This document shows positions 8,487 through 8,624 of a stretch of DNA of 22,177 nucleotides, piece by piece. Location of the stretch: positions 1-22,177 of the IMG/VR virus record IMGVR_UViG_3300029893_000074; one strand, written 5' to 3'. A program made the translations under genes and the position numbers. Source of the stretch: a virus. Numbering within the stretch: the first letter of the stretch is position 1; each line of letters starts with the position of its first letter. Below the pieces are notes generated by a model. It did not search any database. It was not told where the DNA came from and worked only from the letters and a program-made list of their open reading frames with translations.

Positions 8487-8548
8487 GAAATCGTTGTTTG
8501 CTCTTATACACCAAAGTATATGAATTTAATTTTTGCTGTAACGATTTC
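8487..8548 (-). ncRNA. Hairpin-array unit B (62 nt)
   Basis: The minus-strand unit is closed by GAAATCGTT/AACGATTTC (9 perfect pairs). Its core is nearly identical to unit A: ACAGCAAAAATTAAATTC, an inner hairpin TATAC-TTTGGT-GTATA, then AGAGCAAA. The stem differs in sequence from unit A but keeps pairing, which points to selection on RNA structure. No open reading frame is visible. Confidence 0.7.
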
Positions 8549-8561
8549 TAAAGTTTATTCA

Positions 8562-8624
8562 GAAAAGTTTTTTGCTCTTATACTACACCAAAGTATATGA
8601 ATTTAATTTTTGCTGTAACTTTTC
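8562..8624 (-). ncRNA. Hairpin-array unit A (63 nt)
   Basis: The minus-strand unit is closed by GAAAAGTT/AACTTTTC and extends to TTAGAAAAGTT/AACTTTTCTGA with one G-T pair. The core matches unit B except for a three-base GTA insertion after the TTTGGTGTA segment, which keeps the inner stem ATAC/GTAT. The A-to-B repeat period is 76 bases, and the linkers also resemble each other (TTCTG...TTAGAAA). Confidence 0.7.

What the first reader, a model, noticed from the sequence alone, without database searches (positions are those of the whole stretch)
8487..8624. Two tandem ~62-nt RNAs with identical cores and compensatory terminal stems
Units A and B share the core (ACAGCAAAAATTAAATTC, inner loop TTTGGT, AGAGCAAA). 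Their terminal stems differ, GAAAAGTT/AACTTTTC against GAAATCGTT/AACGATTTC, and each remains perfectly paired. Both arms changed together, which is direct evidence for selection on RNA structure rather than on DNA or protein sequence. The inner stem is also kept in unit A despite a three-base insertion. I recognise no RNA family with this core.
Basis: seen in the sequence. Interest (0 to 1): 0.75.

Follow-up and report, generated by a model that had tools for sequence, protein, structure and literature searches.

The report
Phage small RNAs beside Ro60-like gene
A phage carries a row of four tiny hairpin RNAs next to a gene for a protein folded like the human Ro60 autoantigen; the same RNA element sits beside that gene in most phages and bacteria examined and closely resembles an RNA thought unique to social amoebae.

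Summary
On the minus strand, between tRNA-Tyr and a DUF2828/DUF7788 gene, lie four tandem hairpin RNAs (D, A, B, C), not two. Each has a terminal stem followed by NCAGCAA (CAGTAA in D). The protein's predicted fold is Ro60 (Z 21.8; best non-Ro 10.9), although no sequence search links them. In 136 non-redundant loci of this gene family (80 viral, 56 bacterial), CAGCAA is the commonest of all 4096 hexamers in the 600 nt upstream: 247 copies, against 14 on the other strand. Stems covary in units chosen by sequence alone. A covariance model built without the window finds all four units and tracks the gene in blind controls. Beyond the shared element the RNAs vary: anticodon-arm mimics, T-arm mimics (unit C), YrlA-like modules, or the element grafted into tRNA anticodon arms. 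I read them as RNA partners of a divergent Ro protein, working like Y RNAs. Their core matches dictyostelid Class I RNA (RF01414), published as unique to dictyostelids, though no copy reaches Rfam's cut-off. Binding, expression and homology to Class I RNA are untested.

The parts
8633..8669 (-). RNA unit D, minimal 36-37 nt version: stem (T)AGAATA/TATTCT(G), motif CAGTAA at 8658-8653, ends CTGT
   Evidence: R1 hit 16.4 bits, E 0.009; fold; the weakest of the four
8559..8627 (-). RNA unit A: 11-bp terminal stem, ACAGCAA motif (CAGCAA at 8615-8610), inner hairpin with GTA insertion
   Evidence: Sequence, scanner, R1 27.8 bits, E 2.4e-6
8487..8548 (-). RNA unit B: 9-bp terminal stem, ACAGCAA motif (CAGCAA at 8538-8533), inner hairpin TATAC-TTTGGT-GTATA
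   Evidence: Sequence, scanner, R1 18.0 bits, E 0.003
8420..8479 (-). RNA unit C: 10-bp terminal stem, TTCAGCAA motif (CAGCAA at 8467-8462), T-arm mimic GTTGG-TTCGATT-CCAAT
   Evidence: Scanner, R1 16.7 bits, E 0.007, T-arm test
6989..8398 (-). Ro60-like protein gene, 469 aa, DUF2828 + DUF7788 (von Willebrand A) domains
   Evidence: Pfam, PHROGs RNA-binding protein, Ro60 fold
8685..8776 (-). tRNA-Tyr (GTA), directly upstream of the RNA units
   Evidence: ARAGORN
6893..6967 (-). tRNA-Pro (TGG), directly downstream of the Ro60-like gene
   Evidence: ARAGORN and Rfam
8792..8820 (-). Possible promoter TTGACT-17-TACTAT for the tRNA/RNA/Ro60-like unit; weak
   Evidence: Consensus scan not above chance

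Best explanation
The units are small structured non-coding RNAs, encoded on the same strand as a divergent Ro60-like protein, and they are that protein's RNA partners. Shown by computation: a shared element (terminal stem, then NCAGCAA on its 5' side) tied to this protein family across phages and bacteria, with a variable distal part that in many copies imitates tRNA parts. Inferred: the shared element is the Ro-binding site, and the distal part tethers or imitates an RNA or enzyme, as the constant and variable halves of Y RNAs do. The likeliest role of the particle in a phage is handling or shielding of tRNA-related RNA during infection; that last step is a guess.
For: Fold: all 11 best PDB matches are Ro/TROVE proteins; Z 21.8 over 413 residues to Ro60, best non-Ro 10.9. 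Association: CAGCAA commonest of 4096 hexamers upstream of the gene, 247 vs 14 on the other strand in 136 loci; 116 of 136 loci hold at least one. Stem: pairing test on units chosen by sequence only; covariation (rows pre-filtered for pairing). Model R1: E<=0.1 in 19 of 22 records with the gene, including the window, which was not used to build it. Blind controls: nt-1 and Aeh1 have gene and RNA (E 1.1e-9, 2.5e-9); T4, phiKZ, SPO1, RB69, RB49, G and S-PM2 have neither the gene nor an R1 hit better than E 0.086. Distal modules: strict anticodon stem-loops in 30 of 238 segments (shuffles mean 0.6, max 3) and T-arms in 36 (mean 0.1, max 1), nearly all outside complete tRNA genes. YrlA-like RNAs beside the gene in ZJGS4 and Douge. 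The element grafted into tRNA anticodon arms.
Against: No binding, expression or processing data. The protein has no detectable sequence similarity to solved Ro60 even with a profile, so RNA binding rests on fold. In three records with the gene (ZJGS4, S-CoN_Ph2, the record of L008) R1 finds no hit at E<=0.1, although other evidence points to related RNAs there. Window units B, C and D score weakly on R1 one by one. The position upstream of the gene also fits a leader RNA.
Confidence: 0.75

Rival explanations
1. Cis-acting leader: the hairpins are parts of the Ro60-like gene's own mRNA leader, bound by the protein (or another factor) to control its own synthesis, and are not separate RNAs.
For: In most loci the copies lie within 500-600 nt upstream on the gene's strand.
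Against: In KP2025, Douge and AYO145A the R1 hits lie downstream of the gene; in KVP40, Ci1, S13, Vibrio phage 1.081.O, nt-1 and Aeh1 they lie about 7-11 kb away. The element also sits inside tRNA-shaped RNAs. The tRNA-like modules have no evident use in a leader.
Confidence: 0.12
2. tRNA decoys: the RNAs mainly act as bait for anticodon nucleases or other tRNA-attacking host defences, and the Ro60-like protein stabilises or presents the bait.
For: Excess of anticodon stem-loops and T-arms; frequent tRNA neighbours. Compatible with the best explanation as its effector step.
Against: Window units A and B have no such mimic; many copies hold only a plain hairpin. The same RNAs occur in bacterial contigs, where a phage-serving decoy makes less sense unless those are proviral. 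No nuclease target was matched.
Confidence: 0.2
3. DNA-level repeats: inverted repeats serving as protein-binding sites, terminators or recombination sites, with RNA structure a by-product.
For: Tandem, short, partly palindromic copies; two terminator-like matches overlap unit B.
Against: Strand bias 247 to 14 for the unpaired CAGCAA element; no T tract after the terminal stems; covarying arms with an invariant loop motif; presence inside tRNA-shaped RNAs.
Confidence: 0.03

Closest known systems
Dictyostelid Class I RNA (Rfam RF01414; Kjellin et al. 2021, PMC7919456)
   Same: About 60 nt, one short stem joining the ends whose sequence varies while pairing is kept, an 11-nt motif (CCUUACAGCAA) directly inside the 5' arm, variable remainder, AG start, and in many viral copies a CUGU end. 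In whole phage genomes the best RF01414 hits fall on these RNAs, often next to the Ro60-like gene.
   Different: No copy reaches the Rfam cut-off of 41.5 bits (best 33.4 in phage nt-1; window 18.4 and 16.0). A chance hit of 24.3 bits occurs in T4 coding DNA. The CUGU end is common in viral copies (29 of 53 stem-selected) but not in bacterial ones (3 of 38). The known partner in Dictyostelium is an RRM protein, Rnp1A. Common descent is not shown.
Bacterial Y RNA YrlA (Rfam RF02553)
   Same: RNA gene beside a Ro-type gene; ends paired in a stem; tRNA-like distal module in some relatives (Enterococcus phage ZJGS4 45.9 bits, Douge 32.4 bits).
   Different: None reaches the 69-bit cut-off. The YrlA consensus printed by cmscan lacks CAGCAA. 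Window units A and B have no tRNA-like module.
Ro60 / TROVE proteins (PDB 1YVR, 2I91, 2NVO; Thermus phage phiLo Ro60 9L5Y)
   Same: Fold over nearly the full length, helical part plus von Willebrand A domain with a DxSxS metal-site pattern.
   Different: No sequence match to solved Ro60 by profile; Pfam places it in DUF2828 and DUF7788 rather than TROVE. Phage Ro-like proteins are already annotated as such in mycobacteriophages and noted in jumbo phages (PMC7824862, PMC7765460).

Membership tests
Dictyostelid Class I RNA (RF01414) | Rfam gathering score 41.5 bits | tested here: not met
   Window 18.4 and 16.0 bits; best phage copy 33.4 bits
Dictyostelid Class I RNA (RF01414) | Short stem joining the RNA's ends, sequence variable, pairing kept | tested here: met
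Dictyostelid Class I RNA (RF01414) | 11-nt motif beside the 5' arm with T3, C6, C9, A10, A11 nearly invariant | tested here: met
   All five positions kept in units A, B and C (B matches 10 of 11 letters); unit D has 4 of 5 (sequence; definition from PMC7919456)
Dictyostelid Class I RNA (RF01414) | 3' end CUGU | tested here: inconclusive
   Unit D yes, A has CUGA, B and C no; 29 of 53 stem-selected viral copies against a background of 2.8%, 3 of 38 bacterial
Dictyostelid Class I RNA (RF01414) | DUSE promoter element about 60 nt upstream, and Rnp1A binding | not testable with these tools
   Eukaryotic features; no phage counterpart expected
YrlA Y RNA (RF02553) | Rfam gathering score 69 bits | tested here: not met
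   No YrlA match in the window region at E<=10; best relative 45.9 bits
Y RNAs in the broad sense | Encoded with a Ro-type protein | tested here: met
   with the fold
Y RNAs in the broad sense | Bound by the Ro protein | not testable with these tools
   No binding data
Ro60 / TROVE proteins | Ro60 fold over the full length | tested here: met
   Z 21.8, 413 residues, rmsd 4.2 to 1YVR
Ro60 / TROVE proteins | Sequence match to the TROVE family or a solved Ro60 | tested here: not met
   Pfam hits are DUF2828 and DUF7788 only; profile search of the PDB finds no Ro60

The most novel reading that the evidence does not exclude
These RNAs and the dictyostelid Class I RNAs are one family, and both are Y-RNA-like partners of DUF2828-type Ro proteins. 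Class I RNA would then not be an amoeba invention tied to multicellularity but a branch of a phage/bacterial Ro RNP system, in which one Ro-binding element is combined with interchangeable tRNA mimics and occurs in two circularly permuted forms (stem ends free, or stem capped and grafted into a tRNA's anticodon arm).
Probability: 0.3. Interest if true: 0.95.

Novelty: new variant of a known kind. Interest (0 to 1): 0.85.

Why it matters
It defines, by computation, a widespread RNA family that tracks a divergent branch of Ro60-like proteins for which I found no described RNA partner in the papers held here. It offers small, tractable phage systems for asking what Ro RNPs do, an open question from bacteria to human autoimmunity. 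It links them to the Dictyostelium Class I RNAs, whose function is unknown and which were reported as unique to dictyostelids; that claim can now be tested. The excess of anticodon and T-arm mimics points to a testable link with tRNA damage in phage-host conflict.

Tried and rejected
Exact 18-mer core in IMG/VR: five loci, none with the hairpin, so chance or coding matches. Rfam at curated cut-offs: only tRNA. DNA-level search of phages for the region: the listed hits match only the tRNA-Tyr. T4 stable RNAs C and D, considered as possible relatives because of size and tRNA features: no R1 hit in T4 and no motif-plus-stem seen by eye. Permuted tRNA genes: the '3' half then 5' half' arrangement in Douge is better read as a YrlA-like RNA. 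Promoter scan: close to chance. PADLOC and NCBIfam: no match for the Ro60-like protein. The permuted-hexamer control is inflated by hexamers that overlap the motif; the all-hexamer count is the cleaner test. Alignment A3 rows were pre-filtered for pairing, so and model R1 lean towards the stem; one search does not.

Full report
What is there. The window is a 22,177-base virus record with T4-type head genes (gp23, prohead protease, scaffold). The reported repeats lie at 8487-8627, but the RNA strand is the minus strand. Read that way, the order is tRNA-Tyr (8776-8685), four hairpin units D, A, B, C (8669-8420), a 469-aa gene (8398-6989) and tRNA-Pro (6967-6893), all on the minus strand. Every reading frame across the region contains stops. 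Unit C has the motif TTCAGCAA inside a 10-bp stem and a T-arm mimic, GTTGG-TTCGATT-CCAAT. Unit D is a 36-37 nt minimal version with CAGTAA.

The neighbouring protein. Pfam assigns DUF2828 and DUF7788; PHROGs calls the family an RNA-binding protein; 682 phage records hold a relative, and mycobacteriophage annotators call it Ro-like. An AlphaFold model from 39 window and locus sequences has mean pLDDT 92.3. All 11 PDB matches with E<=0.001 are Ro60/TROVE structures; the second look gives Z 21.8 over 413 residues to Ro60, with the best non-Ro chain at 10.9, covering only the von Willebrand part. The metal-site pattern DxSxS is invariant. A profile of the family finds no Ro60 in the PDB by sequence. 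This is therefore a divergent Ro60-like protein, identified by fold.

The RNA family. I fetched relatives of the gene from phage records, IMG/VR and bacterial genomes. In 136 non-redundant loci (80 viral, 56 bacterial), CAGCAA is the commonest of all 4096 hexamers in the 600 nt upstream, 247 copies on the gene's strand against 14 on the other; 116 loci hold at least one. Typical viral copies run AGR-N5/6-NCAGCAA-variable-stem'-CCUGU. For a test that does not use pairing to pick the units, I chose 61 by sequence at both ends only: stem positions 3, 5 and 6 pair in 80-87%, against 37-40% with 3' ends swapped between loci. On an alignment of 27 units, six of seven pairs have changes on both sides, with 65 such cells against 23.4 in shuffles; those rows had been filtered for pairing.

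Gene and RNA go together. A covariance model (R1) built without any window sequence finds all four window units, A at E 2.4e-6 and B, C, D at E 0.003-0.009. It has hits at E<=0.1 in 19 of 22 records that carry the gene, and all hits with E below 0.001 lie on the gene's strand (gene positions). Controls were picked without knowing whether they held the gene: nt-1 and Aeh1 turned out to have the gene and the RNA (E 1.1e-9 and 2.5e-9), while T4, phiKZ, SPO1, RB69, RB49, G and S-PM2 have neither the gene nor a hit better than E 0.086.

The variable half. In 238 segments after CAGCAA, 30 hold a strict anticodon stem-loop (5 bp, loop CTNNNA[AC]) against 0.6 expected from shuffles (max 3 in 60), and 36 hold a T-arm (TTCRANY) against 0.1 (max 1); reversed-loop controls give 0. 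Nearly all lie outside complete tRNA genes. Other relatives are YrlA-like (Enterococcus phage ZJGS4 45.9 bits, Douge 32.4 bits). In Synechococcus phage BUCT-ZZ01, Cronobacter phage S13, Citrobacter phage Ci1 and several bacterial loci the element appears with its stem capped and grafted into the anticodon arm of a tRNA-shaped RNA, which reads as the same element circularly permuted. Window units A and B have neither mimic; C has the T-arm.

Resemblance to Class I RNA. A permissive Rfam search puts units A and B on RF01414, Dictyostelium Class I RNA, at 18.4 and 16.0 bits, below the 41.5 cut-off. In whole phage genomes the best RF01414 hits fall on these RNAs: LAh_9 (29.8 bits, with several more beside the gene's start), FNU2, BUCT-ZZ01, S-CoN_Ph2, LP-125, KVP40, nt-1 33.4 bits, MS02, Ahp1, KP2025; most of the same places are R1 hits. 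One T4 coding stretch scores 24.3 bits, so single hits of that size mean little; the clustering beside the gene is the evidence. Kjellin et al. (PMC7919456) describe Class I RNAs as 42-65 nt, one variable but paired stem, an 11-nt motif beside the 5' arm, AAG start, CUGU end, and as unique to dictyostelids. The viral copies share the stem, motif and start, and 29 of 53 stem-selected copies have CTGT at the 3' end against 2.8% background; bacterial copies mostly do not (3 of 38). Whether this is descent or convergence on a similar protein surface is open.

How it probably works. Shown: the association, the conserved element, the paired stem, the Ro60 fold. Inferred from Y RNA biology (in Deinococcus, Y RNA tethers the Ro60 orthologue to a nuclease, as summarised in PMC7790460): the constant stem plus CAGCAA is held by the Ro60-like protein, and the variable part tethers or imitates tRNA-related partners. 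Guessed: the particle helps phages handle tRNA damage or tRNA-targeting defence. A leader-RNA role is the main rival; it does not explain copies downstream of the gene or about 7-11 kb away from it.

Novelty. Ro proteins and Y RNAs in phages are not new as such (PMC7824862; PMC7765460). I found no description of this RNA element, its tie to DUF2828-type proteins, its two permuted forms, or its likeness to Class I RNA, either in Rfam at curated cut-offs or in the papers held here. The main Wolin-laboratory reviews and the 2014 Yrl paper were not available to read, so prior mention there cannot be excluded.

Noticed in passing
window 10376-12926 (-): Nicotinamide phosphoribosyltransferase and ribose-phosphate pyrophosphokinase genes side by side, the pair expected of an NAD+ salvage route in a phage.
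   Followed up: no
window 4160-5677 (-): A homing-type HNH endonuclease gene on the opposite strand, directly after the gp23 capsid gene.
   Followed up: no
window 9155-9961 (-): An R2K-clade ATP-grasp protein near the RNA units; substrate unknown.
   Followed up: no
L011:4395-4637, L010:4391-4508, L009:4081-4327: Phage tRNA-shaped RNAs, annotated as tRNA-Ser, tRNA-OTHER or pseudo-tRNA or left unannotated, carry the CAGCA-type element in place of a normal anticodon arm.
   Followed up: partly
L118, L128, L139, L144 (bacterial loci): ARAGORN reports 'tRNAs with introns' upstream of the gene in Lachnospiraceae and relatives; the insert is the stem plus CAGCA element, so they are probably not working tRNAs.
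   Followed up: partly
Enterococcus phage ZJGS4 PV523737.1:117035-117148 (locus L022): YrlA-like RNA beside the Ro60-like gene, 45.9 bits, below Rfam's 69-bit cut-off.
   Followed up: partly
L009-L142, distal hairpins after CAGCAA: Mimic loops carry varied anticodons (UUU, UGU, CAU, GCU, UGA and others). Whether they match host nuclease targets was not examined.
   Followed up: no
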